From: Ectocarpus siliculosus
Lineage: Eukaryota > Sar > Phaeophyceae > Ectocarpales > Ectocarpaceae
DNA: 64,000 bases
Reading direction: 5' to 3'
Assembly (NCBI GenBank): GCA_000310025.1
Contig: FN648459.1
Location: 7,031-71,030, forward strand
Made by a program: the position numbers and the translations under genes. The notes beneath the pieces are model-generated. The model saw only the letters and a program-made list of their open reading frames with translations. It was not told where the DNA came from and searched no databases. The stretch's first letter is position 1. The number at the start of each line of letters is the position of its first letter. Below are positions 1,016-52,363 of this stretch, one piece after another.

Positions 1016-1718
1016 CCGCGGCACCCATGACCCCGGAAAAGAACGAAATATGGCAAATAGCGCAACATGACAATCACATTGCAGGGGGCGCAACCATGAT
1101 AGTTCTGACGCAACCAAGAAACCAGCGTACGAGTTTTTACAACACCAGTGTGACGAGGCCGAAATGCATTGTGGCGGAAACGCCCGTGAACCAAGAAGAA
1201 CCCATCACGGAGTATCTTGCTGTGTGCGAACAAAAGGCGAGGGCTGCGGGCCGCGGTCGGCAGAGTCAGCCGGCAAGGGCGGAGATCCTACTGCAATAAA
1301 ACGTGCTCTACGCACCAGGCGCGACCCATGAGCGGCTCGACGCGTCGCGAAGGATCCCTCTGGCAGCCAGGTGGCCGGATAGAGGTCAGAGGAGGGGGGA
1401 AACAGGAAGCGGGTTGACAGGAAGCGGGTTCGCGCACCCGCCTTGACCCGACTACTAAACTTTCGTGTCCACGAAAAAGAGCAGGGAACAAACATAGTTC
1501 TTCTAACATCAGCAAGAACTCATTTTGTCGCGAAGAAGCAAACATGATCTCATCTCGCTGTTGCGAGTCGGCTGGGTACACAGGGCCACGATCTCCTCAT
1601 TGTCTGTGTTCCGCGCGGGAGCGGCCGGCCGCTGGCAGAGCTGCCCCCCCCCCCCCCATGTCCCGCCGGAGCCTCTCGCTGCTCCAGCATGAACGAGCTA
1701 AAAAAGGCGTTGCATCGC
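1016..1718. other. spacer, no gene seen
   Basis: No frame in this stretch has convincing coding character. It has a short direct duplication of GGAAGCGGGTT near 1,405-1,430 and a C12 run near 1,647. If the exon at 118-412 and the coding region at 1,719-2,466 belong together, this is intron sequence. Confidence 0.4.
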
Positions 1719-1768
1719 CTAGAAACCCAACCCATTAAAAGCCGCCGGGCGTTCCTCTCCCTCCTGGC

Positions 1769-1801
<33 letters not shown>

Positions 1802-2466
1802 GCCCCGATCCTCCGTTCCCACGCCCCTCCAGCTCCCTCGCTGTAGGCAGGGTGACGCAGCCTTCCCCGCGCTTGAGGAACCCAGCGCTGTCGGCCAGGC
1901 GGACGATGCACTCCGTCACGACGCGCTTCCCCAGGTGCGCCCAGAACTCCCGCGAGGCATCACCTTCAATGTTGGATAGGCTCGCCACGGGTAAAAGCTG
2001 CATAAACGTTTTCCCCAGGCGGGACAGGCGGGACAGTTGTAGCCAGCGGCACCAGCTGCACGGTCGCTTCCGCCGCAGGGAGGCTACCGAGGTATACCTC
2101 CTTGTCGGGAAGCCACACCCGGTTGGGATTCACGGACGAGACAACGCCGATGCTGGCGCGGTCAAAACACGGCAGATCCTCGATCGACGTTGATGACAGC
2201 ACGACTGTGGCATCAGCAAGGATCGGCGGCGGCGGGAGGGTCGACGCTGCCGCCGGCTGCTTCGCGGCAGGCGCCGAGTCCTGAGGAGGACAGGACCGCG
2301 GCGGCCGCCGGCTAGCCCGGGAAGGCGACGTGGGCGGGCTGGCCGTGGGGAGCGACGACGATAGCGTGTTCGGCATCACGATCGTCTCGAATTTTCTGTC
2401 CTGTACGTCCTTTCGAGAGGTTATTGCTTTTCGAGAGAGAAGTGCCAACGGGGGTACCGATTTCAA
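1719..2466 (-). CDS. hypothetical protein, Ser-homopolymer C-terminus, one frame change
   Basis: Two overlapping minus-strand frames look coding. The first (about 2,466 to 2,030) is Pro/Ala/Ser-rich and then reads SSTSIEDLPCFDRASIG and NPNRVWLPDKEVYLGSL. The second (about 2,030 to 1,719) reads SLSNIEGDASREFWAHLGK and GFLKRGEGCVTLPTAREL, followed by a ten-serine tract encoded by a (CTG)10 microsatellite and a short tail ending at TAG (1,719-1,721). The frame switch near 2,030 has no room for a normal intron, so it is either an indel (decay or a sequence error) or a very short intron. No family was recognised. The Glu-Phe-Trp and GEGC segments look conserved but I cannot name them. Confidence 0.45.
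1771..1800. repeat. (CTG)10 microsatellite
   Basis: Ten uninterrupted CTG triplets. On the minus strand they are AGC codons and encode the serine run of the 1,719-2,466 coding region. Confidence 0.9.
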
Positions 2467-3304
2467 GTAACTTGGGGGGTCCTGCAGCTGGTGGTGTTCG
2501 GTGCCGGAACTGGATTTTCATCTGATTGACTCCCAATATACTGTTGTTCTCGAGTGGTGTGGTGGTGGATTGCTGGACGTACCATGGAGGGCACGATATT
2601 TACCCATCCTTGCTACAATGTCGCACATTCCGTGTGTACTCGTGTAGTTGTCGATTGCCGCCTCAGGCCTCTTGTACGAGCCTACGGTATTGGGCGCACC
2701 CTAGGGGGTGCTGTACGCAGTGTACCCTGCAGCCGGGGAGTGTGCTGGTGCGCTGTTCAACCGCTGTACACAGGGTGCGTTTCCCCGTGTGGTAGGTCTT
2801 TAGCAACACGCATACGCGTTCGCCATCTAGGCGCTGCCAAAGCTGGAGGAATGGGTGGAGTGATATCATCAAGACGCCTTCGCGGCTGTGTCGTATCGTG
2901 CTCTGTAGGCCATTGCTGTATTAACTACTGCTGACTGCTCAGACTTGCACATGTATGTCCTGACCGCAACTAACTATATACTCTGACAGACCTCCGCCAG
3001 TGTACATCTGCTGGACTGCCGTTCTTTCCGACGCGTTATGCAGTGAGGACGCTCCTGGAGCCCTCGCATGGCGTCTGTACATGGTCGGCCTGGTACTACT
3101 ATCCGCCAACGACTCAACCTAGTCACACAACAACTATACTCACACCCGCCAAGACTCCACACAGATACACAACAACAGCAAAAAAACGGACAAAAAATAT
3201 TGAAATTTTCATATATGTATTGTGCCCGTAGTCTACTTTCAAGCAAATTGCCGACCGACGGTCGACGAAGACGTTCTGCGAGAATATAACTTGGGTTATA
3301 ATGG
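2467..3304. other. spacer, no gene seen
   Basis: Short overlapping frames on both strands lack consistent coding character. No splice-bounded exon, repeat or RNA gene was recognised. Confidence 0.4.
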
Positions 3305-3550
3305 CCGGAACCATGCACATCAATAGTGTCTGGCGGCCTTGGTCGGTGGATCGGTTTCTATTCAACAACGCTACATACATATCAGGGTTGTTGCCTTGTG
3401 GGCGATTCACGCATATATACAGCGCATATATACAGAGAGTAGAAATGCCGGAGCCATACACATGAATAGTGTCTGGCGGTCGTGGTCGGTGGACTTGTTT
3501 GTCAACAATGCTCCCTACCAGGGTTGTTGGCGGGCGATTCACGCATAAAT
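3305..3550 (+). repeat. satellite S, two monomers
   Basis: Two head-to-tail copies of an approximately 120-bp unit. Each has GCCGGAACCAT-type sequence, ATAGTGTCTGGCGG, GGTCGGTGGA, AACAATGCTCC or AACAACGCTAC, CAGGGTTGTTG and GGCGATTCACGCAT. The same monomer occurs six times in the opposite orientation at 41.07-41.78 kb, and a fragment lies at about 8.5 kb. Confidence 0.8.
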
Positions 3551-3564
3551 ACAGAGAAGACCAT

Positions 3565-3640
3565 CCTTCCCCGGCCTGCTGGGGTGGGCCCAGGTCCGAA
3601 AGTGGACATAGACCTCAAAAACACCACCACAGACAGTCGC
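3565..3640 (+). repeat. copy 1 of a 75-bp direct repeat
   Basis: Contains CGGCCTGCTGGGGTGGGCC followed by AGTGGACATAGACCTC and an ACACCACC end. A second direct copy sits at 4,672-4,750, about 1.1 kb downstream and just upstream of the LINE. Confidence 0.7.
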
Positions 3641-4671
3641 TCCGCCTTCGATTTCGCTCGGATAGGGGTGAGTGGGTTGGGCAAGTTGCATTTTGGCAGA
3701 CCCGGATGTAGAACGGGTCGGCTATGATCTGATGGATAGCGACTCGTTTCTTTCGGTCGATTACCGAGGGGTCCCGGCGTAGCAACCATTGGTTTCAATA
3801 ACGTGAAACACTCGCTACAATAGTATGCTATGTAGTCATACGTGGTGCAATACTTGTACCAAGGCCATTTTTCTACTCATTTCGCAAACGTGATCGAAAA
3901 AGAGGGTGGTTAAGTCCTTCACGCGTGTGAGCTTGATACACAGGGTGTCACCTCTCCTCTCAGTTAAGGAGATGGTGCGCACATTTGAACATCTTTTGAC
4001 TACTGCTTGTACTGTTGGACACAGCATCCCCTTGCATGCTAACCACGCGACGAAACTAGGACCATCAGCCATACATCGACTCTGGTTGAAGGGCTCAAAT
4101 CGGCGTCACCAAACGAATAAAATCCTAACGTGCCTAAACGTACTATCCGCCAACAAGTAGCCGAGACAACGAGTAAGGGTCGTGTTTTCCTCGGCAAGGT
4201 CCCCTAAAGCTGCGCTACACTCCAGAAACCCGGGTCGTCTGTCGTAGTCCTATCCGCAAACCCCAGCTTTATCGACGGGCCCGGACCTCCACTTCACACG
4301 CCAAGAGTTACTGCTTGCGTTCGATACCATATTGTATCTTGACATGAGCACAGCACCGAACGAGTATTAGGGGTTAGTGCGAAGGTGTACCGATTATGGT
4401 AAAGTCAATCGACGGATACCCTGCGAATTGGGTCTCTCCGCCGGCAGAATTTACCCGCAATCAACTGGGAACGCAGTGCGGGCCAGGACGGGTGATTGGA
4501 TGGAAATGTCATAAGGTTCTTCGTAGGATCGACTCCAAGAGGTGCTCTCAGGACTGACACATATATATTTGTGTCAATGGGAAAATGTCCAAATCAAGAG
4601 AAAAATGTGCGCCCTAGGATATTTCAAGCAGCGTCCTGCCGAGGCCATATATATGCGAAGAAGGTGATTCT
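3641..4671. other. spacer, no gene seen
   Basis: A relatively AT-balanced stretch with short random-looking frames. It sits between the two copies of the 75-bp direct repeat and could be an element bounded by them, but I see no coding core. Confidence 0.35.
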
Positions 4672-4750
4672 CCTCCCCCCCGGCCTGCCCCCCTCCCTGC
4701 TGGGGTGGGCCGAGGTCAGTGAGTGGACTTAGACCTCGAAACACCACCCA
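4672..4750 (+). repeat. copy 2 of a 75-bp direct repeat
   Basis: Matches 3,565-3,640: CTGCTGGGGTGGGCCGAGG then AGTGGACTTAGACCTC and ACACCACC. It abuts the presumed 5' end of the non-LTR retrotransposon. Confidence 0.7.
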
Positions 4751-5189
4751 GCAAACGAGGGATACACAGTCCCTAGCACTGATCAGAAGGGAATCCTGAG
4801 TTTGGCGGCCAGGAACTGCCGCTATCGTAAGATCGGGGTAGCTTGCGACCTAGCCGACTTGGGTATAGCTGCAAGTGAGACTGAATCCAGACGCCCCGGC
4901 TTGGACACCGGGGCCAAGCAGCAGCAGAGAGCACGGTGTACACCGTGGGGGAATGCACCAGAGACGGGAAAGTAGAGGGTCCAGCGCTGGAGGGCCGCAC
5001 CACGCCGGGACAAGACAACTCGATGGGCCAAAAGGCAAGCACCGGGGTAACTTTTACAGTAGCCCGAGAGCCCGCAAAAAAACAAAAGAACGACAAAAAA
5101 AAGAGGGGACGGAGGAAGAAAAGGAGGGGACGGGCGAAGCGTGAGCTGGCTAAGAGAGCAGCACGCACCGCCCGAGAGAGACAGCAGGG

Positions 5190-5937
5190 TCGAATTCTTA
5201 GGGTAGCAACCTGTGCGGACTCTGGCTGCGGGAAGAACAGGCGGGCGAGCCTACAGTATCCTACGAGTCAGCGAAGCAAGATGTATCGGTGGTAGGGCTG
5301 CAGGAAATCAGGAGGTCAGGTCACACGGAGTTCGCGGCAGCGAGGTTCCGAGTGTTCTGCTGTGGTACGGAGAAGTGTAGTGTCCATCGTGTGGGAGTAG
5401 CGAGTCACTGTGTAAGACCTCCATTTTCACCACGAACTATGTCGATGAACGCCTCATGGCCATGAGGTTGAGATGACGGGCCACCAAGGAGCTGTGAACT
5501 TCGTTGCTGCGTACGCCCCGACCGAGGTCTCCGCCGACGACAGCAAGACAGAGTTCTGGGGGAAACCTGACAGTCTCGTGCGGAGGATTCCCTCCAAAGA
5601 GTGCGTGTATTTCGTGATAGACGCTAATGGTCGGAACGGAGAGAGGATGGATGGGGAGGACGAGGGAGTCATGGGGATGCATGGGCGTGATGAGCTGATC
5701 GAGAATGGCCGACTTCTGCTGACCTTTGCAACGGACAACAAGCTAGCACTCGCGAACACTTTCGTCAAGACACGCAAGGGCGGAATATGGCACACATACA
5801 ACAGTGCGTCAGGAACCGGCCGCAGGCGCATAGACTACATCCTAACGCGGCAGGTACACCGCGGCCGAGTGTCTAACACGTTGTTATCCACCAGCCCGTA
5901 TACCCAGTCAAGGCGGACTCAGATCACGACATGGTGA
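5190..5937 (+). pseudogene. LINE endonuclease (EEP family), frameshifted
   Basis: Endonuclease/exonuclease/phosphatase fold of a LINE, which nicks target DNA for target-primed reverse transcription. Motifs in order: a strand reading RILRVAT (about 5,190), VVGLQEIRRSG with the metal-binding Glu (about 5,300), NFVAAYAPTEVSADD (about 5,500), VIDANGRNGE in the place of the usual GDFN (about 5,620), NTFVKTRKGGIWHTY, RRRIDYILTRQ (about 5,830), and SDHDMV with the catalytic His region (about 5,925). The pieces lie in different frames with at least two shifts (near 5,400-5,470 and 5,880-5,920), so no intact protein is made. Confidence 0.8.
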
Positions 5938-6659
5938 TAGCCACCGTCTACCTCGGTGGCAGGCTTGCTCACAACCGAGCAGTCCTGACCAAACCGAAAC
6001 AGAAGCAGTTCAACCGACGGGAACTGCAGGTCGAAGCAACACGATGGGCGGTGAATGCGCGGTTCCTCCTCAACCGCGACCAACGGCAGGGGGGCCGAGC
6101 GACCACCACCTCGGAGAAGGCGACCGAGTTCACCAATGCTCTCCTCGAAGCGGCGAGGGCAATATGACGCACGCAGGAATGGTGTGAGACCCCTGAGACA
6201 AGAGCAGCATTGCAGGAGGCCCTGACCAAACGGCGGGAAGCGCGCCGAGCGATGAAGGACCAAGTTGAACACAACATCGTGGAGGGCCCTCAAAGCAGCG
6301 TGTAAGGGAGTGGCCGCAGCAGTCGAAACGGGCATATATGCCCACTGGACAGATATGTGACGGAATGAGATGCCTCTACCCACACGTCAAGAGATCAGTG
6401 GGGCTCAGTGGGAGATAAGTGGGAGGACAGCAGCCCGTTGCGGACGAGAATGGCGTGCTGCTCGGGAGAAAAAACGACATCCTCCAGTGATGGGCGAGAT
6501 TCTTCGGCACCCTCGTCAATACCAAGCCCCCCACCCTGAACCCAGACATCATCGAACAAGTGACGCAGCGACCGGCGACACGTGCCACTCGACGGTTAAG
6601 ACAACAACAACACCGCCCCCACCGCCGCCACCGCTGACCATCTAGGCAGCAGAGCAGAG

Positions 6660-7515
6660 GTACGCCCAGACGACTGAATTCCGGTACCTCGGTGGCGTCG
6701 TCAACGAACATGACGACCTCTCCCGGGAGATAAATTACCGGAGCAGAACAGCGTGGGCATGCGTCAGGAGATATGGCCAGAAGCTCTTCGACAGGCCGAG
6801 GGCACCGTTCGGACTCAAGACGCGCGTGCCCCAGGCCGAGGCGATGGAGACACTGCTGCACGGCTGCATGACATGGGCCCCACGTCAAGATCAATACCGG
6901 ACGTTGTGGGCGATACATCACCACCTGCTTTTGCGAGTTATCGGTTACCATCGCAAGAAGGGCAGCTACCGGCAGCTTCACTACGCCCAGACCCTGAATA
7001 GGGTAGGGTGCCAGAGCGTGGAAGCTACTGTCCGGCAACGGCGCCTGCTGTTCGCGGGAGCACTGGCAAGGAAACCAGACGGACGACTCCCGAAAGGGTT
7101 GATGCTTGGCGACCTGGTGGGAGGAGACGGCCCAGGCAGGGGGAAACCGGAGCTAACCTGGCAGATGTGCCTGAAGCACGACCTCAAGATGTTCGAAGCA
7201 GAGCACGGATCTACGGACGCCGAGCCATGCCTCTTCGGAGTCGCAGCAGCAACTTGGGTGAAGGCAGCGAAGGTGGACCGGGGGGTACCGCGGCATACAG
7301 GGGTACTGCAGGGAGCTAAGAGGTTCATGACCTCCTGGCACAAGAAGGAAGAGAAGGCTAGCCGACAACGAGCACTCAAACGAAACAAATCCCGCAACAC
7401 GGACACGGCTATATCCACGGGGGCGGGAGGGGTACAGCAGGCTCATGAGACGGCCAGGGAAGACGGGGAACGCGAAGAGGCGGACCGAGTGGCGCGAAAT
7501 ACTGTCCCGCTTTGA
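6660..7515 (+). pseudogene. LINE ORF2 C-terminal (post-RT) region
   Basis: The reading frame continues from FRYLGGVVNEHDDLSREI, typical of the segment just after the RT thumb in LINEs, through LLHGCMTWAPRQDQYRTLW, LLLRVIGYHRKKGSY and RQRRLLFAGALARKPDGRL to a stop at 7,513-7,515. The last 229 codons (from about 6,826) are open. It lacks any RT catalytic residues because the core is deleted upstream, so it is non-functional. Confidence 0.8.
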
Positions 7516-7551
7516 ATCCCTTACTTGACTTAATCCCCCCCCCCCCCCCCC

Positions 7552-8344
7552 GGTAAGCGTAACGATGTTTGTTTGCCATCGGGGTTGGGTTTTCGTCGCT
7601 TGGCAGCGACGTTGTCAAACAAGCCGATCACTTCGTGAGCTCGGCAACCAGGTTACCGCTTTTTTTTTTGCCTGTTTTTTTTTTTTTTGCGGTAACCATG
7701 AATGGTGGTCGAGTAGATTATGTTGTGCGGGGTCGAGAACCCTCACGCCGCGCAAAGGGGATAATCGCACGTTGTGTTAAGTTGGTCAAGCACCCTCGAG
7801 GCAGTTACACAGGGCTTTCAACTGGCTCTGAAAGTGAAAGCACCTGAAAATAAATTAAGTCATACGCAGCTGTCATCCGTAAGCAAGGAAGTAAGCACAA
7901 TATGCCGAACACCCTTAGCAGGATGCAGCGCACCCTTCATGCGACTCGCCAAAAACCTCACGGTGCTTCGCGCTTGGTGATGTGAGTGCCTGGTCCGGTG
8001 AGAACCCGGCGTGCTCCGTCCCGGCTTTGTAGGGATGCGAGGTCAATGGTCTAACGACTACGGCATGCACGACTATGAGTACCCCCCCCCCCCCCCCCCC
8101 GACACTGCACCATTTCATCCACCCCCCGCGAAAGAAGACGTGCATTTTCTGGCTCGGGGGGCCCGCTTTGGGTTGGGTTGTTTTGGGCCGGCCTGGTTTA
8201 CCCCGGTTGTTTCTTTGGTTGGTGGTTTTCTCTGTCTGTGTCTTTCTCCTTCTCCCTTCTCTCCATCTGCTCTCCTTTTCTTCATTTTCTTTCGTATTCC
8301 GCAGAGCGTGCAGAGACGAGCGGAATGGCCTAGACTACCTATCG
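7552..8344. other. spacer with homopolymers and a short dispersed repeat
   Basis: Holds T-rich tracts near 7,660-7,690 and a C18 run near 8,084-8,100. That run follows a dispersed repeat (7,988-8,085) that recurs at 22.2 and 57.1 kb. A pyrimidine-rich stretch lies at 8,225-8,300. No gene was recognised. Confidence 0.5.
7988..8100 (+). repeat. dispersed repeat B ending in a C run
   Basis: GGTCCGGTGAGAACCCGGC, then TTTGTAGGGATGCGAGGTCA, then ACTACGGCATGCACGACTAT, followed by a long C run. Related copies with the same order lie at 57,115-57,200 (plus) and at 22,235-22,310 (minus). Confidence 0.75.
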
Positions 8345-17495: not shown

Positions 17496-18205
17496 CTCGC
17501 AGGATGGTCGTCGTGACGTGATACATTTCTTGTTATTAGTATGGAAAAAAATAAAAAAAAGATGGCTCGATTTTTGTATTTCTACAGCAGTATGAATAGC
17601 TCGATTACTGCTGTTTTTTTGCAACAGCAGTATAGACTAGACGCCGAACGACGTCCGCGTACTACCGCAACGACCAAACTGGATGGGATACTTCCTGCCA
17701 CGGGGAACCATAGTACAATGCGATGCAAACATCCGTTCGTGTGTCGCGCGGCTACCACATGTGTCGACGACAGGTACACGTAGAGCTCTCGCCATGTTGT
17801 CGTTACCGCGCAGGAGGACCCCTCGGAGATCTTCCGCATGGTGCTACAACAACAGCAGTACATATGTCGTAGGAGAATGGAGTTGTAGTGTCACGGCATC
17901 TCCCACGCACTCTCCTACCCGTGCTTGTATCGATTGGAGTCTTGTAGGCCGAAATACAAGAGTGGGTTGGGCTCCCGGGTTGTGGAAGCACACCTGCCTG
18001 GAACAACAGAGAAGGCGGTGTTCTATTTACTACAGTATCCCGCTCAACCTTTTTTTTTATTGCGGCATGTGGTTGCATATACTTCTTTGCCACTGCCGAA
18101 AAAGACCGCTGGATCTTTACGCAGTCCATCTTTCGCATTTATCATTTTACACCGAACGACGCAAGACGGGTCGACCTTCATCATTGTTGTTGTTGTTGTT
18201 GCCTC
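17496..18205 (+). mobile_element. element X, copy 1 (non-coding)
   Basis: Begins AGGATGGTCGTCGTGACGTG. It includes CGCCGAACGACGTCCGCG, TGGGATACTTCCTGCCACGG, ACACGTAGAGCTCTCGCCAT, CGGCATCTCCCACGCACTCT and ATACAAGAGTGGGTTGGG, and ends in a (GTT) tract. An inverted, near full-length copy lies at 45,485-46,375 and diverged copies at 19.5-20.0 and 48.8-49.0 kb. No conserved protein frame or catalytic motif was found, so it is probably a non-autonomous element of unknown class. Confidence 0.75.
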
Positions 18206-45500: not shown

Positions 45501-47437
45501 GGTCGACCCGTCCTGCGTCGTTCAGTGTAAAATGATAAATGCCAAGAGGTACTGCGTAAAGATCCAGCGGTCTTTTTCGGCAGTGGCAAAGAAATATGCG
45601 ACCACATGCCGCGAAAAAAAAAAAAAGATGAGCGGGATACTCTATTATAGTAAATAGAACACCGCCTTTTCTGTTGTTGCAGGCAGGTTTGCTTCCACAA
45701 CCCGGGAACCCAACCCACTCTTGTATTTCGGCCTACAAGACTCCAATCGGCACAAGCACCGGTAGGAGAGTGCGTGGGAGATGCCGTGACAGCACAACTC
45801 CACTCTCCTACGACATCTATGTACAGTAGTACTGCTGTCGTTGTAGCACCATGTGGAAGATCTCCGAGGGGTCCTCCTGCGCGGTAACGACAACATGGCG
45901 AGAGCTCTACGTGTACCTGTCGTCGACACATGTGGCAGCCGCGCGACACACGAACGAATGTTTGCATCGCACTGTACTATGCTTCGCCGTGGCAGGAAGT
46001 ATCCCATCCCGTTAGGTCGTTGCGGTACTTGTAGCACGCGGACGTCGTTCGGCGTCTAGTCCATACTGCTGTAGCAAAAACACAGCAGCAGTAATCGAGC
46101 TACGCATGCAATTTTTTGCTCTGGTTCACTTTTGCCTCCACAACCCGAGAATCCCACTGCTGTATCTCGACCTACAAGACTCCAATCAACAAACCAGCAC
46201 TGGCAGAAGTGCGTGGAAGATGCTGTGACAGCACAACTAAGTCGACACTCGTACGACTTCCATGTAAAGTCGGCGTCTGGTCCATACTGATGTAGAAATT
46301 CAAAAATCGACCCGTCCTTTTTTATTTTTTTCCATACTAATAACAAGAAATGTATCACGTCACGACGACCATCCTGTAAGTATATATATAACATGATCAC
46401 ACCCCTTAAGGGAATTTGGCTGCAGGTTGTTGGGAACTTTGTCACCATCTCCCGTTCTTCTATCATACTGTCCCGGATGAATGAAGGCTTCGTCAACGGG
46501 TGAACCTTTTGACGCCAGTGACACAAGATATCACGTCCCTTTCCGGCCTCAACTCCCCGTTGACAAATTATATAAACTTCAAAACCTTACAGCCGAAGTC
46601 TTTCGTCTTGTACCTCTTGCGGCAGGTCGCTGAGACGATAATGTGCAATTTTTGGGACAAGGTAATTGCGAAGCAGGTTACCTACCGGCAATCAGGCAAC
46701 GACGTGGACTGGTGGGTACACGGGGCTACCCAATGCCGTGCCTGCATGCACTTCGGCCACACGCAAGTGGACTTTGGTTGCATAGATCAAGACGTCCTCT
46801 ACGACGCTTGCAGGTATGTCGTGGCTTCAGTTTGTACACAACTATTTGTGCCATAAAGAGAGCTGCACAACCACCGCTTGGGCACATCGTGCTTGACCCC
46901 CACGAGGTGATCATTATTCCCTTATATCCAAGTTTCTTTTTGTCTATCTCCAGGTGTAACGACGACCATGCAGAGTATTTGTTCGAGAACGGTGCTATCG
47001 TCCACTACTACTACGCCGGTGGTGATCCAGACAAGAGCATCGAGGATGCATTGCTTGGACATGGAAATGTTTCCCTGTCTTACTACGACGCGGTTCTTGC
47101 CAACAACGGGAATGGTCCAAAAATGACCGTAGACAATGTTTGTAAAGCAGCATTCGAGCTACAAGCACTGTCGGTGCCCTTCTTCTGGCTCAGTACTTAC
47201 AGTGGGCAGGGTAGCGTCAATATGTGGAACGATACGCAGAAGGCACAGTTTACTCAGTCTGGCGCCCGATTTGTAGACGTCGGCCATATGGTTTTGGGGC
47301 TGTCGAATTTCACAAAGGGAGTGGTTGAAGATCTTGTTGATCCTCACTTTTGCCTGCCAGGCCCTCCGGATGAGTTAGGTTTCCTCTTTTTGAAGATAAT
47401 TTGGGCACTTTACCTCGAGGGAGGAGCTGCAGCGTAG
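42572..47437 (+). CDS. PC-esterase / TBL-like protein, exons 42,572-42,737, 46,626-46,813, 46,954-47,437
   Basis: Exon 1 follows a TACTGTAG acceptor, reads YFCPSLSGFDRGYPKWVPHH and ends NFKVLMYGNSHMRQ at a GTGAGG donor. The GNSH block sits where SGNH hydrolases carry the GDS nucleophile. Exon 2 (CTTGCGGCAG acceptor, GTATGT donor) reads VAETIMCNFWDKVIAKQV and ends QDVLYDACR. Exon 3 (TCTATCTCCAG acceptor) reads NDDHAEYLFENGAIVHYYY, FFWLSTYSGQGSVNMWN, RFVDVGHMVLGLSNF and VDPHFCLPGPPDELGFLF. The DxxHxCLPGxPD block is diagnostic of PC-esterases (plant TBL/Cas1p type), which add or remove acetyl groups on polysaccharides. Junction phases agree (0, then 2). Stop TAG at 47,435-47,437. Upstream anchor exon proposed at 33,446-33,756. 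Probably Golgi-resident; the substrate is unknown. Confidence 0.8.
43050..43751 (-). pseudogene. retrotransposon reverse-transcriptase N-terminal remnant, antisense in intron
   Basis: Minus frames read NEGAGWIGCMITREGVESLG, FQQIAEATDSQSIQRILG and ECMLETLGTLPAHELTPYEF. After a frame change near 43,480 they read SEGAPVAVTGQGEVRTAIKY, RTIIVEDFLAGRAFVFPRES and SKVRVCHDLTNAVSGRRVND, then RILLAKMD before decay. The sequence K-x-R-x-x-HDLT followed by a VN motif and a (L)AKMD strand is the start of an RT palm; the YxDD part is absent. The class (LTR-like or DIRS-like) is unresolved. It lies in the 3.9-kb intron of the PC-esterase-like gene. Confidence 0.55.
43752..44910. other. intron sequence, no gene seen
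   Basis: GA and CAG-rich tracts at 44,033-44,100 and a long pyrimidine-rich stretch at 44,580-44,740. No coding exon was identified. Confidence 0.45.
44911..46375 (-). mobile_element. element X, inverted copy inside the PC-esterase intron
   Basis: Its reverse complement runs through the X unit of 17,496-18,205 (46,375-45,485, with a second diverged unit inserted at 46,290-46,090) and then the distal arm of 20,050-21,065 (45,460-44,911). The outer end CTAGGGTTAAGGATTGGCC (44,918) mirrors GGCCAATCCTTAACCCTAG (about 21,045). No protein-coding core. Confidence 0.8.
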
Positions 47438-48250
47438 TTACCCCCAAAACTGTCGGCAATGACCCACAATGACGTCGTCTCGGCACGGCTTGTAGGTCTA
47501 CGTGAGAGCTTGCCGAAGGTGTTCGCTCAGAAAGGCAGCCTGCAAAATCCCGACAGGTGGGACATTGCTGCGTGATGTTCCGAAATGTGGTGACCCTCAA
47601 AATGATGAGATAATAGAGGTCATGGCTACTGGCTGACCCTAGGGCAAGGGTTTGACGCTTGAAGAGGAGAATGGGGTATAGAGCGGAGTTTACCTGACGT
47701 TCCGACTTCCACTGTCTACGTCTCAAGAGTCCTGACGCCGAACACTGCCGGCAGTTTCTCTCTTTCGTGCGTGGACCGGGGTAAAACCAAGGGGTTCGAA
47801 GGGGAAAACCGAGCGTATTCAAGGTCATATTCTTCAGTTGAAGATCGTGTTCGTCAGGGAGACCGGTTGACGGCGGCCAGACCACTGGTGGTCACCGTTT
47901 GAGGTTGATGACTTCCAAGTGGTACATAGCATCAACGTCGACTTCAAGACCGGCATCCACCCATCAATTCCCGGTGGTGGTCTAACCTAGGAAGGGTGGT
48001 ATCCTCTCTGTATCGACCGGTGTGGTATAGCCTGGGAAGGGAGAAGCGAGCGTTCAGCTGCCTCCTTGGCATATTGCCCTTTGAATAAATAATTAATGGG
48101 GAGGGGTCGCGGCAGTATACAGCGCTCAGGACAAAAGAGAACCAACCAACTGAGAACATGGTCGGGGAGGGATAGGGCGTCGAAAGACTCTAGAAACGCA
48201 CCACGTGTAGTCATGTGGTTCTCGCTACGTACGGCCGACCAACTGTTAAG
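47438..48250. other. 3' flank of the PC-esterase-like gene, no gene seen
   Basis: No coding exon was recognised. AATAAATAATTAAT near 48,085 is the first clear A/T cluster after the stop codon, but no definite polyadenylation site can be named. Confidence 0.4.
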
Positions 48251-48574
48251 AAGCACGATGACCACTAGACCGCTAGTCAGCGCTGACTGGTAAGTGGTCA
48301 TCGTGACTCGCAACAAAAGTAAATGCGTCAAGCATTATTTCAAGCCACGAACACATTCCCCCAGGGTTGCATGAACCTCTTGTATTCTACGATCATGGAT
48401 CGGGATCGCCGATCGGATCGCCGAGCGCTGATCACAGGGACGGCAACCCATGGGGAAGGTTTTCGTGGCTTGAAAAACGTTTGACAGACTCGGGCATTAA
48501 CAATTATTTATTTTGGAGCCCGGTCACCCACCACTTGTCGGCGATTGACTAGTAGTTTAGTGGTCATCGTGCTT
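48251..48574. mobile_element. MITE-like element, 324 bp
   Basis: Left end AAGCACGATGACCACTAGAC. The right end, reverse-complemented, is AAGCACGATGACCACTAAAC; both continue into CTAGTCA with a few mismatches. A third inverted copy of the core (AGTGGTCATCGTG, about 48,292) makes an internal hairpin. Target duplication is unclear. No coding sequence. Confidence 0.6.
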
Positions 48575-48819
48575 TTCAGCACAAACGCTTGAAAGCAACC
48601 CCACTTGTGAACAACCGAGACTGATGTTAGCCTTCGCATCTCTCGTGAGACCAAAGGAATATCTGAAGGGCGCAGTGCAACGGTGCACTGAGGTACGCGA
48701 AGTTTCCTCTTCGACAATTCAGGAAACGCCGGAATAATATGTGAGTTTTACAAAGTCTAACTCCGGGTGCCTTCATGTATTTGTCCATTCCATGAAGGAA
48801 CACCATGGAATACTCTACA

Positions 48820-49040
48820 CACAACACGGCATCTCCCACGCACTCTCCTACTGGTGCTTGTGTCGATTGGAGTCTTGTAGGCCGAAATACAAGAGTGGGT
48901 TGGGCTCCCGGGTTGTGGAAGCAAACTTGCCTGCAGCAACAGAGAAGGCGGTGTCCTACGGTATCCCCCTCAATTTTTTTTTTTTGCGGCATGTGGTTGC
49001 ATATACTTCTTTGCCACTGCCAAAAAATACCGCTGGATAG
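48820..49040 (+). repeat. element X fragment
   Basis: CGGCATCTCCCACGCACTCT, GGCCGAAATACAAGAGTGGG, GAAGGCGGTGTCCTACGG and GTGGTTGCATATACTTCTTT match 17,895-18,115 in the same orientation. Confidence 0.85.
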
Positions 49041-49302
49041 ACTACTAATTTTTCGGCCCGAAACATTCCGAGAACGACCCAGTCGCAGGCTATTTCAGCG
49101 GTCCCAAGCGATGCCGGTTCGCAAATCAAAATTTTCCTCCTTTATAAAATCTCCAAATTTTAAAAAAGACAACTATTTGTACTACAGTACACACAGCTCT
49201 AGTCTACATCGACTAATAGTCACCGGTACCTATATACTACATATGCATACACACCGGCATACATACCCTGTGTACAGCACAACCAACCTCCTCCGATGGC
49301 AA

Positions 49303-49749
49303 AGCAACTGCTGTGTATATGCTCAAGTAGAGCATGTCGGGAAGCTGGTGGCATGGCCAGCCTTACCCTACCGTCGGATGACCGGAGGGCGAGATGGCTG
49401 AGATGTTTATTTTGGCGGCCGAACAGAACTACACGAAGCTTGTCGGGCGGGCGTCTCTCGTTCATGTCTCCCCAAGACCACCAATTGAAAAGCAACAAGC
49501 CGAATCAGGGCGGTGGCGGTTTCCCTCCGTTTGTTCGCGGACGCAAGGAAGGGTGCTGTCCCAGATCAGACGGACGGGCAGACAAGGGTGGCGACAGCAG
49601 GAGCCTTGGGGAAGTTTCGGAAGGCCGAAGCTCCGGCCGAAGCTCGGTGTGCTGCCTGGGAAAACGAAGCCTCGAAGCAAGGAGCTGGGGCATCGGACTT
49701 GCTTGATAAATTGCGGCTGTAGGACGAAGGACGATGTCATCTCTTCACT
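49303..49749 (+). repeat. left arm of a 447-bp inverted repeat
   Basis: Runs from GCTGTGTATATGCTCAAGTA to GATGTCATCTCTTCACT. The right arm at 50,057-50,505 is its reverse complement, with roughly 5 percent mismatches by eye. Two frames within the arm (MAEMFILAAEQNYTKL and LFADARKGAVPDQTDGQT) remain open in both arms. This suggests coding origin or merely recent duplication. Confidence 0.9.
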
Positions 49750-50056
49750 CCGAAGTGATGTTGTTACTTGTTTCGCTTCAATAATGGTCGCCACCCACAC
49801 ACATCACAAGCGACGGTAGCGTTGTCGAACACACTCCCGGACGCGGCGAGCCCCTCTAGGTTACGCACGGACACGATCCAGAAGCGACGATGCTCTTACG
49901 GGACCACAGATACTACGCGCTGCGCTTGGCTGCAACCGCTTCAGGATCGTGTGGTTGAATCTCCCCTCCCGCCTGCCCCCCCCCCCCGTCTCTGTGCCTT
50001 CCACACGCCTGCCTGCCGTCGTTCTCACCATACCCCGCACCAGCAACATTATTCTC

Positions 50057-50505
50057 AGTGAAGAGATGACATCGTCCTTCGTCCTACAGCCGTAATTTAT
50101 CAAGCAAGTCCGATGCCCCAGCTCCTTGCCTCGAGGCTTCGTTTTCCCAGGCAGCACACCGAGCTTCGGCCGGATCTTCGGTCTTCCGAAACTTCCCCAA
50201 GGCTCCTGCTGTCGCCTCCCTTTTCTGCCCGTCCGTCTGATCTGGGATAGCACCCTTCCTTGCGTCCGCGAACAAACGGAGGGAAACCGCCACTGCCCTG
50301 TTTCGGCTTGTTGCTTTTCAATTGGTGGTCTTGGGGAGACATGAACGAGAGACGCCCGCCCGCCAAGCTTCGTGTAGTTCTGTTCGGCCGCCAAAATAAA
50401 CATCTCAGCCATCTCGCCCTCCGGTCATCCGACGGTAGGGTAAGGCTGGCCATGCCACCAGCTTCCCGACATGCTCTACTTAAGCATATACACAGCGTTG
50501 TTTTG
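50057..50505 (-). repeat. right arm of the inverted repeat
   Basis: Reverse complement of 49,303-49,749. The loop (49,750-50,056) is about 307 bp and contains a C-rich run and no recognised gene. A transcript across both arms would fold into one long hairpin. Confidence 0.9.
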
Positions 50506-51126
50506 TACGATACCGTAATATCCTTTGTCGTAGCCCCCCTCCGTGAAACCCCCCCTCCCCCCCAAAAAAGAAAAGAAAAATACCGCCGGGGTACCAAAAA
50601 TACATTGTCGTAGGCCCGGATGACCATAGTTTTTTTCGTACCCCCCCACCACTGTTTCTTGTGCGAGCCCCAGCGGGATGTTCTTCATTGACGTCAAAAT
50701 TGTCCTACCGATAGGGGCATTCACACACAAACCCAGGCATTCCATTATGGGAGAATCTTCGTGTGTGCGGTTGCCGATTTGTCGTATAATAGTAGGTGGT
50801 TTGCTGTTGGTGTTGCTTCTAGGGTGCTATGGCAGGTGCATCACAGCAGAGAACAGACAACACCGCGGGTACTATTCGCCCCGTGGCACTTTGTTTTTTT
50901 TATCGTTCTTCTACCGTTGTCTCAGTGTTTTATTCCAACAGGATATTTTGGTATGTTTCCATATGGCATGGTTTACAGTTTCACCCCTCTTATAGTAGCC
51001 AAAACCGGTTTACCAACACCTTGGATCTTGCCGAGTGTGTTTTTCACATCTTAGATCCGCACCGTTCAACCATAGCGACGGCACCACACAACAGAAGCAC
51101 CTGTAACCCACAGGGTTCACTTGCAG
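50506..51126 (+). other. possible upstream exon of the 51-kb gene
   Basis: An acceptor-like TTATTCCAACAG near 50,942 opens YFGMFPYGMVYSFTPLIVA and KTGLPTPWILPSVFFTS before a stop near 51,056. It looks membrane-like but could be fortuitous. No donor was fixed. Confidence 0.25.
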
Positions 51127-52363
51127 GCTTGCAGCGCTGAACTTGACGACCGTATCGCGCGTGTGTCTCTTGTCACCTCTCCCACCTTCCGTGTTCGCGT
51201 ACTTGCACCCCCCGAAACCCAGGTGCCCATGATGCAAGGGCAGCCTCCCGTTCCGTCGGACAAGGACACGGCGAACAAGACCCTACGCGGATCTGTGGGT
51301 AAAAGTACTTCTACGTAGATTGGCTCATTTGCTGACCCACTTGTGTGCTGACCCTAGTTGCATGTAGTTTGCGACACCAATGCTCCTCCACGCGGTCCGC
51401 GATATGGATTTTCTGCGTGTGTCCGAGATCGGCACGCACGAGTCGGCGGCGCGCAGGGCCACCAGGCAGATGCGGTCTTGGTCAAGGCTGATCAACGGGG
51501 GATTCCCTGACCGTCAAGCGCGAGCCTTCAGGAGAGGTGCATATTTTTGCTGATGTTGTGTTGCGATGAAATAATACATACTCTTACTTGTGTTGTCTTA
51601 TTTTAGTCCTCCCACCATAAAGAATTAGCTGCCTGCTCCCGTACGTACATGTAGTCTACGCACCGATACTTTAGACCAACCTTATTTCTAGCTTGACCAA
51701 GCCCAGGGCATTGATATCTAAGTGTTCACACTTCTTTGTGGCTTTCAGACGTTCCTCGCCAGCGTCTCGCCTGTCGCCCTATCCGACGACCCGTGTACTC
51801 ATGTTTTACTTTGCCAGCATGTGGCGCCAGCTGTTCCACTACATCACGGGACCCCGCCGCCACGGGCACGCCCTCCGGACGCTCTCCCACTGGGATTACG
51901 ACAAACCCAAGATCGTCAAGTTCCTGTGCCCGTACGCCGTCACCTCAGGTGCAACAAAACGTTAGTTGCAGGCCTCCGCGAAAAAGTCCGCTTGCTCACA
52001 GCTCTCAACAACATTTCCATCGACGTCGATGTTTGATAGCGCGCGTTGTGGGCGTCTGTCCCTTCCACTTGCTAAGTTAGGCCAATATCGATACGGAAAA
52101 TAGGTGGAACACAAAAAAAGCAGAGAGTTACACAGGTTCGTCAACACTGCGTGCGATGCCTCACATACCACAAGTAGTCCTGCCCCGTCAAAATGGTCCC
52201 ATCCGACTTTCCTCTCGGTCTTGTAAATTTCTCTGCAGAGGGCGTTGCCGGAGCATCGTCCGACACGGAGGGCCGCCTCATGGTCGCAGAGACCCTCCCC
52301 CGGGGAGACAGCATCGAGCTGGATGGCGAGGAGCTCGAGGACTTCCTTGCCGACATGAACTGA
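51127..52363 (+). CDS. gene of unknown function with acidic C-terminus, four candidate exons
   Basis: Exon a (51,127-51,294 or 51,298) reads AELDDRIARVSLVTSPTFRV and KDTANKTLRGS and ends at GTGGGT or GTAAAA. Exon b (51,368-51,536) reads FATPMLLHAVRDMDFLRVSE and RRATRQMRSWSRLINGGF, donor GTGCAT. Exon c (51,749-51,948) reads VLMFYFASMWRQLFHYITG and HWDYDKPKIVKFLCPYAV, donor GTGCAA. Exon d (52,239-52,363, acceptor TTTCTCTGCAG) reads GVAGASSDTEGRLMVAETLP and SIELDGEELEDFLADMN, ending TGA. Phases agree for a-b (using GTGGGT) and c-d, but b-c differ by one base, so a boundary or an indel there is unresolved. The 5' end is missing. No family was recognised. Confidence 0.55.

What the first reader, a model, noticed from the sequence alone, without database searches (positions are those of the whole stretch)
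49303..50505. Long hairpin locus: 447-bp arms around a 307-bp loop
The arms are nearly exact reverse complements and the loop is short, so any transcript across it makes long double-stranded RNA, a classic natural source of small RNAs. The arms are coding-like in two frames, so the small RNAs could act on a parent gene elsewhere.
Basis: partly seen in the sequence, partly recalled or inferred. Interest (0 to 1): 0.75.

Follow-up and report, generated by a model that had tools for sequence, protein, structure and literature searches.

The report
Truncated foldback transposon in brown alga
The long hairpin is one damaged copy of a repeated, gene-less DNA transposon with unusually long inverted ends, very probably moved by a Harbinger-type enzyme made elsewhere in the genome; it could in principle make double-stranded RNA, but nothing here shows that it does.

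Summary
The inverted repeat is real: 445-nt arms, 97% complementary, 297 nt apart. It is not a unique hairpin gene. The same unit occurs at 18 places that cover at least 660 of the 1203 query bases (78-100% identity, the window's own included). Intact copies are longer, about 1.7 kb with inverted ends of about 720 bp. The window copy starts at 49039 with AGACTACTAATTTTTCGGCC and has lost about 265 bp of its right end: at about 50496 it is joined to the interior of another repeat.

25 of 28 ends that I counted follow AT (5% expected); in a wider count it is 28 of 39. One paralogous empty site holds exactly one AT. AT duplications are the published mark of ISL2EU, a Harbinger relative. One locus (C187, near-duplicate C454) joins a related end to an HTH_Tnp_4/DDE_Tnp_4 transposase; its other end was not found. 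The arms match that element's non-coding end and show no sign of coding.

Best reading: a non-autonomous foldback element of a Harbinger/ISL2EU-like system, ordinary in kind. Small-RNA production is possible but untested. The "parent gene" idea is not supported.

The parts
48825..49038 (+). flanking older repeat into which the element inserted; it ends in AT at 49037-49038
   Evidence: 90% identical to window 17892-18114, 87% to L004 3825-4048, 86% to window 45788-45562; these three uninterrupted paralogues read GGATCTTTACGC at the site
49039..50495 (+). whole surviving element (foldback, non-autonomous, right end truncated; right limit good to a few bases)
   Evidence: aligned to other copies from 49037 onward; right limit from comparison with five copies of the neighbouring repeat
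49039..49058 (+). conserved terminus AGACTACTAATTTTTCGGCC
   Evidence: with AT in front it occurs 30 times in the genome at up to 3 mismatches, 0 for the reversed control
49039..49309 (+). outer part of the left inverted end, whose partner is missing on the right in this copy
   Evidence: present at both ends in L004, L005, L007, L008; only one match on contig C74 (one search scored 40 of 48 candidates)
49755..50051 (+). loop; its right part (from about 49896, interpolated) is related to the C187 transposon next to its end
   Evidence: there to 50496
50496..51500 (.). interior of another high-copy repeat joined to the right arm (full extent not determined)
   Evidence: 16 other places match 50506-51500 at 94-97%; in five of them that I read, the repeat shares CGTTGTTTTG with window 50496-50505 and runs on to the left with sequence absent from the window at that point

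Best explanation
The locus is a truncated copy of a non-autonomous foldback DNA transposon family (about 1.7 kb, inverted ends of about 720 bp, no gene). A DDE transposase made by a Harbinger-type element elsewhere is inferred to have recognised the AGACTACTAATTTTTCGGCC ends, cut the element out and inserted it at an AT, which was duplicated. The family probably arose when the transposase-side end of such an element was duplicated in inverted orientation and the genes were lost: both ends of the foldback resemble the same end of the C187 element, and the right half is colinear with it further, into the loop. The window copy landed in an older repeat at 49038 and later lost the outer 265 bp or so of its right end in a deletion or rearrangement that joined it to the interior of another repeat, so it is probably no longer mobile. 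Shown: dispersed family, ends, AT flanks, one exact empty site, arms without coding signal, truncation. Inferred: transposition in trans, identity of the transposase, birth by end duplication, deletion as the cause of the truncation.
For: 18 places cover at least 660 of 1203 query bases. L002, L004, L005, L007 and L008 have inverted ends of 678-750 aligned positions at 92-98%. 25 of 28 counted ends follow AT against 5% AT in the window; with the 8 damaged ends that I had left out and three ends read later (L030, L031, L032) it is 28 of 39, one of these (L013 left) realigned by eye. The L004 site, with flanks joined over one AT, matches the uninterrupted paralogue at window 17212 without an indel at the junction; in the window copy the junction falls on an AT in three uninterrupted paralogues of the host repeat. 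C187 has a related end (88% over 123 bp, then 76-79% over a further 450-600 bp) about 2.2 kb upstream of an ORF with HTH_Tnp_4 and one with DDE_Tnp_4, read away from that end. Three sister copies (transposase 47-48% identical) have AT|AGGCTTCC ends about 1.9 kb upstream of the transposase, with different flanks. The literature gives AT duplications for ISL2EU.
Against: No complete autonomous element with both ends was found: the C187 element's second end is unknown, and a first candidate for it was disproved. In the sister loci the far limit of the shared sequence shows no AT|AGG end, so AT is seen there on one side only. C454 shares C187's flank, so it is not an independent insertion. C187 is only 76-88% identical to the family, so it may be a relative of the mobiliser, not the mobiliser itself. 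HTH_Tnp_4 in C187 is just under its cut-off (25.8 against 27 bits; 33 bits in L045). The second empty site (L008) is off by one T. 3 of 28 counted ends, and 11 of 39 in the wider count, do not follow AT.
Confidence: 0.82

Rival explanations
1. A Mu killer-like silencer: the foldback is transcribed, the duplex is cut into about 21-nt RNAs and these silence the transposon family in trans.
For: Very stable long duplex; 238 of 425 21-mers shared exactly by the two arms; Argonaute exons at one place; in maize Mu killer both ends also derive from the transposase-side end (PMC3440606, abstract and passages); 21-nt small RNAs lie on transposons in Ectocarpus (PMC12477816, passages).
Against: Many copies rather than one locus; the homology to C187 stops about 1.5 kb before the transposase ORF, while Mu killer carries about 1.3 kb of mudrA; only 21 of 1447 exact 21-mers match the C187 locus; no transcript data.
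Confidence: 0.1
2. A hairpin-RNA or microRNA-like gene derived from a host protein gene.
For: Long near-perfect hairpin; open frames of 175 and 183 aa across the right arm.
Against: No Pfam match; flat codon-position variability, 30 of 89 frame-keeping indels, stops in nearly every arm and frame; the relatives are transposon copies.
Confidence: 0.03
3. A foldback element of the Mutator superfamily, as most described foldbacks are.
For: Same architecture: long inverted ends, no gene, short middle (PMC4079207, passages).
Against: Target duplication is AT, not the 8-10 bp reported for Tetris; the linked transposase domain is DDE_Tnp_4.
Confidence: 0.04
4. Assembly artefact (a false palindrome).
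For: Palindromes are a known artefact class (recalled).
Against: The arms differ by about 3%, and the same structure with different flanks is found on other contigs, several of them of 4-9 Mb.
Confidence: 0.01

Closest known systems
ISL2EU group of the PHIS (Harbinger-like) transposons (PMC4482050: abstract and passages seen)
   Same: AT target duplication, with A in front in 11 of 25; HTH plus DDE domains at the linked locus
   Different: the linked second gene has XPG_N and XPG_I and a sub-threshold SWIM match, not YqaJ; no THAP match in the ORFs scanned; the window element itself has no gene
Foldback elements such as Tetris of Drosophila virilis (PMC4079207: passages seen)
   Same: long inverted ends, short middle, no gene
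   Different: 2-bp AT duplication instead of 8-10 bp; Harbinger-like rather than Mutator-like
Mu killer of maize (PMC3440606: abstract start and passages seen)
   Same: inverted duplication in which both ends come from the transposase-side end of an autonomous element
   Different: a dispersed family without transposase coding sequence; silencing untested here
Harbinger families of Ectocarpus (PMC12477816: abstract, section 5 and passages seen)
   Same: Harbinger-type transposons with two tail-to-tail genes and non-autonomous families; brown alga
   Different: that paper reports ANT and TNA duplications; the words ISL2EU, foldback, XPG, SWIM and YqaJ are not in its main text. Its supplements could not be searched

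Membership tests
Foldback / long-TIR non-autonomous DNA transposon | long inverted ends around a short middle | tested here: met
   678-750 aligned positions at 92-98% in L002, L004, L005, L007, L008
Foldback / long-TIR non-autonomous DNA transposon | many dispersed copies with sharp common ends | tested here: met
Foldback / long-TIR non-autonomous DNA transposon | target-site duplication | tested here: met
   AT at 25 of 28 counted ends, 28 of 39 in the wider count; one exact empty site, one off by a T
Foldback / long-TIR non-autonomous DNA transposon | no transposase gene of its own | tested here: met
   no Pfam match in the three ORFs that overlap the element; no coding signal in the arms
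ISL2EU | AT target duplication | tested here: met
ISL2EU | target A|AT|T | tested here: inconclusive
   A before AT at 11 of 25 AT ends; L004 fits exactly; the window site is G|AT|C
ISL2EU | DDE and HTH transposase on an element with the same ends | tested here: inconclusive
   C187: HTH_Tnp_4 (just below cut-off) and DDE_Tnp_4 inward of one matching end; second end not found
ISL2EU | THAP domain in the transposase | tested here: inconclusive
   no THAP match in the ORFs scanned, but no full gene model was made
ISL2EU | second ORF with YqaJ exonuclease (in most members) | tested here: not met
   neighbour gene has XPG_N/XPG_I; the one YqaJ match in the genome search is at C16:4387488, not near any copy found
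Mu killer-like silencing locus | inverted duplication of the transposase-side end | tested here: met
   both foldback ends match the transposase-side end of C187, with the reserve that C187's other end is unknown
Mu killer-like silencing locus | inverted transposase coding sequence | tested here: not met
   homology ends about 1.5 kb before the transposase ORF
Mu killer-like silencing locus | hairpin transcript, small RNAs, silencing | not testable with these tools
   no RNA data

The most novel reading that the evidence does not exclude
A whole family of self-copying Mu killers: a foldback transposon made from the transposase-side end of a Harbinger-type element that spreads with that element's enzyme and, wherever it is transcribed, makes hairpin RNA that silences the promoter end of the same elements, so that parasite and brake spread together in a lineage described as lacking an animal- or plant-like epigenetic silencing machinery (abstract of PMC12477816).
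Probability: 0.08. Interest if true: 0.65.

Novelty: new member of a known kind. Interest (0 to 1): 0.27.

Why it matters
It replaces a one-off hairpin gene with a transposon family whose ends, target site and probable enzyme type are now named, and it adds a Harbinger-like case to foldback elements, most of which are filed under Mutator. For brown algae, where 21-nt small RNAs lie on transposons, such foldbacks are natural, testable sources of double-stranded RNA.

Tried and rejected
Second end of the C187 element at L033 1272 (AGACTAATAATT after AT): at first it looked like the other terminus and would have given a 7.9-kb element. The five other genomic copies of that stretch that I read run on past it to L033 1392-1394, so it lies inside another repeat; rejected. 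The joined-flank search for its empty site gave two unrelated repeats, not an empty site. No second end in C187:40000-56400.

A second repeat 'starting' at 50506: my first reading, whose query began there. Reading five of its copies showed that the repeat runs further left in them and that the window is broken at about 50496; the claim was changed.

YqaJ as partner gene: one match in the genome search. Rfam: no match in the window at gathering scores. Coding arms: rejected. An autonomous copy in the long C39 copy (306088-316370): its extra length falls into separate inserts between family pieces; what they are was not determined. Single ends at C9:4129021, C17:4275254 and C16:1240759: no second end in the 9.9 kb fetched for each. 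Strict arm homogenisation within a copy: only 5 of 14 copies with two arms have arms more alike than to any arm of another copy. C206:4946 has a DDE_Tnp_4 match but lies 6 kb outside a copy with both ends.

Left out of the 25-of-28 count: eight damaged ends (L005 left, L006 left, L010 right twice, L013 left, L016 left, L019 right, L021 left); of these only L013 follows AT, if realigned by eye. The 28 include the C187 end (L024). L030 (AA), L031 and L032 (both AT) were read in the same call but outside the count. Arms matching less than 380 nt of the core were dropped; L023, L024 and L033 were dropped before the coding test. One self-comparison in the script printed nothing, probably because an option was given twice; it was redone.

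Literature, in the held library only: no paper with both ISL2EU and foldback or with all of Harbinger, XPG, SWIM and transposon. Five with ISL2EU and algae and four with brown alga, inverted repeat, hairpin RNA and transposon, seen as listings only apart from PMC4482050.

Full report
OBSERVATION. The inverted repeat is present as described: arms 49310-49754 and 50052-50496, 445 nt, 97% complementary, 297 nt apart, or 464 aligned positions at 96.3% when extended by BLAST. Folded as RNA, 49303-50505 gives one long duplex of -1044.9 kcal/mol (no shuffles at that length).

ORGANISM. The window is part of contig C74 of a 189-Mb, 492-contig genome. The EsV-1-7 cysteine motif, which the Ectocarpus transposon paper says has proliferated in brown algae, gives 150 scored matches from 880 candidates and none in the 14 control genomes. 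I therefore take the host to be a brown alga; the species was not determined.

A DISPERSED FAMILY. Of 78 matched segments of the 1203-bp stretch, 18 (the window's own included) cover at least 660 bases at 78-100% identity, and 13 of these cover at least 1120 (the tool calls its counts lower bounds). In other copies the homology runs further out on both sides: inverted ends of 678-750 aligned positions at 92-98% in L002, L004, L005, L007 and L008, and a unit of about 1.72 kb in L004. The window copy begins at 49039 and follows this unit to about 50495. The stretch 50506-51500 matches 16 other places at 94-97%. In five of these that I read, that repeat shares CGTTGTTTTG with window 50496-50505 and then runs on to the left with a sequence that the window lacks at that point. 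So the window shows a break that joins the right arm to the interior of another repeat, with about 265 bp of the arm missing. The missing part was not found elsewhere on C74; I infer a deletion or rearrangement.

TARGET SITE. The terminus with AT in front occurs 30 times in the genome at up to three mismatches; the reversed control pattern occurs 0 times. Of 28 ends that I counted, 25 follow AT, against an AT frequency of 5% in the window; 11 of the 25 have A before AT. I had left out eight damaged ends; with those and three ends read later the count is 28 of 39, one of them realigned by eye. Flanks of the L004 copy, joined over one AT, align to the uninterrupted paralogue at window 17212 with no indel at the junction; L008 against window 7628 differs by one T. 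For the window copy, three uninterrupted copies of the host repeat carry an AT at the insertion point. A published survey gives AT duplications and an A|AT|T target for the ISL2EU group of Harbinger-like transposons (PMC4482050, passages).

ENZYME PARTNER. Of 75 DDE_Tnp_4 matches in the genome, I saw two inward of family ends: C187:52500 and C454:8878. The two loci are about 96.5% identical, one flank included, so they are one insertion seen twice. In C187 the end matches the family at 88% over 123 bp and, after a gap of about 80 bp in the family sequence, at 76-79% over a further 450-600 bp, on one side continuing about 135 bp into the loop. An ORF with HTH_Tnp_4 (25.8 bits, just below its cut-off of 27) starts about 2.2 kb inward and is followed by one with DDE_Tnp_4 (101.8 bits), both read away from that end. 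A second gene with XPG_N, XPG_I and a sub-threshold SWIM match lies tail to tail with it. The element's other end was not found, and my first candidate was disproved. In three sister loci with 47-48% identical transposases the transposase-side end reads AT|AGGCTTCC, with different flanks. Two of them, L045 and L047, carry the XPG gene too; L046 showed none in the stretch held. The far limit of the sequence shared by L045 and L047 shows no such end.

ORIGIN AND MODE. Both foldback ends resemble the same, transposase-side end of the C187 element, and the right half keeps the longer colinear match. I infer birth by inverted duplication of that end with loss of the genes, then spread in trans. Arms within a copy are 95-99% alike, but only 5 of 14 copies have arms closer to each other than to arms elsewhere, which fits family spread rather than continual homogenisation.

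SMALL RNAS. The arms show no coding signal: mean variability over the three codon positions is 0.034, 0.044 and 0.041, 30 of 89 indels keep frame, and five frames are stopped in all 33 arms, the sixth in 30 of 33. The ORFs over the element match no Pfam family. Argonaute (Piwi) exons lie at one place, C2:6872705-6877263, and there are two RNase III matches, so processing of double-stranded RNA is conceivable. In Ectocarpus 21-nt RNAs map to transposons (PMC12477816, passages). Of the window copy's 1447 21-mers, 849 and 839 match two close family copies exactly, 60 and 99 two old ones, and 21 the C187 locus, so any small RNAs would mostly meet other foldback copies. The closest silencing parallel is maize Mu killer, whose two ends also come from the transposase-side end (PMC3440606, passages); but it carries transposase sequence, and this family does not.

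VERDICT. Observation confirmed; interpretation partly supported as a possibility and not supported as to a parent gene. It is a damaged copy of a foldback transposon family, Harbinger/ISL2EU-like by target site and by one linked locus. I do not file it as an ISL2EU member, because the YqaJ gene typical of that group was looked for and not met.

Noticed in passing
L033 (C187:46500-56400) 1439-4782; L045 and L047: Harbinger-like elements with an AT-preceded end carry a tail-to-tail second gene with XPG nuclease domains (XPG_N and XPG_I over cut-off in L033; XPG_N over cut-off in L045; XPG_I below it in L045 and L047) and a SWIM-like cysteine motif (sub-threshold Pfam match in L033 only). ISL2EU is described with YqaJ and other groups with Myb/SANT. 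Possibly a new subgroup.
   Followed up: partly
window 50496-51500: Interior of a high-copy repeat (16 further places at 94-97%); related, more diverged pieces lie further on in the same contig (C74:78825-81295, outside the window). Its type was not determined.
   Followed up: partly
window 48825-49038, 17892-18114, 45562-45788: An older repeat present three times in the window; the foldback inserted in one of them. It creates look-alike ORFs (THSPTxACxDWSLVGRNTRVGW).
   Followed up: partly
window 48244-48581 and 48338-48475: Two further short inverted repeats (36 and 33 nt, 83% and 88%) just left of the element.
   Followed up: no
window 5473-7515: ORFs that by eye resemble pieces of a non-LTR retrotransposon (endonuclease-like); the one scanned, 5473-5937, gave no Pfam match.
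   Followed up: no
L009 (C39:305500-314500) 2979-7643: A 4.7-kb insertion in a foldback copy with about 5 bp of query overlap at its edges, as a retrotransposon with a 5-bp duplication would leave.
   Followed up: no
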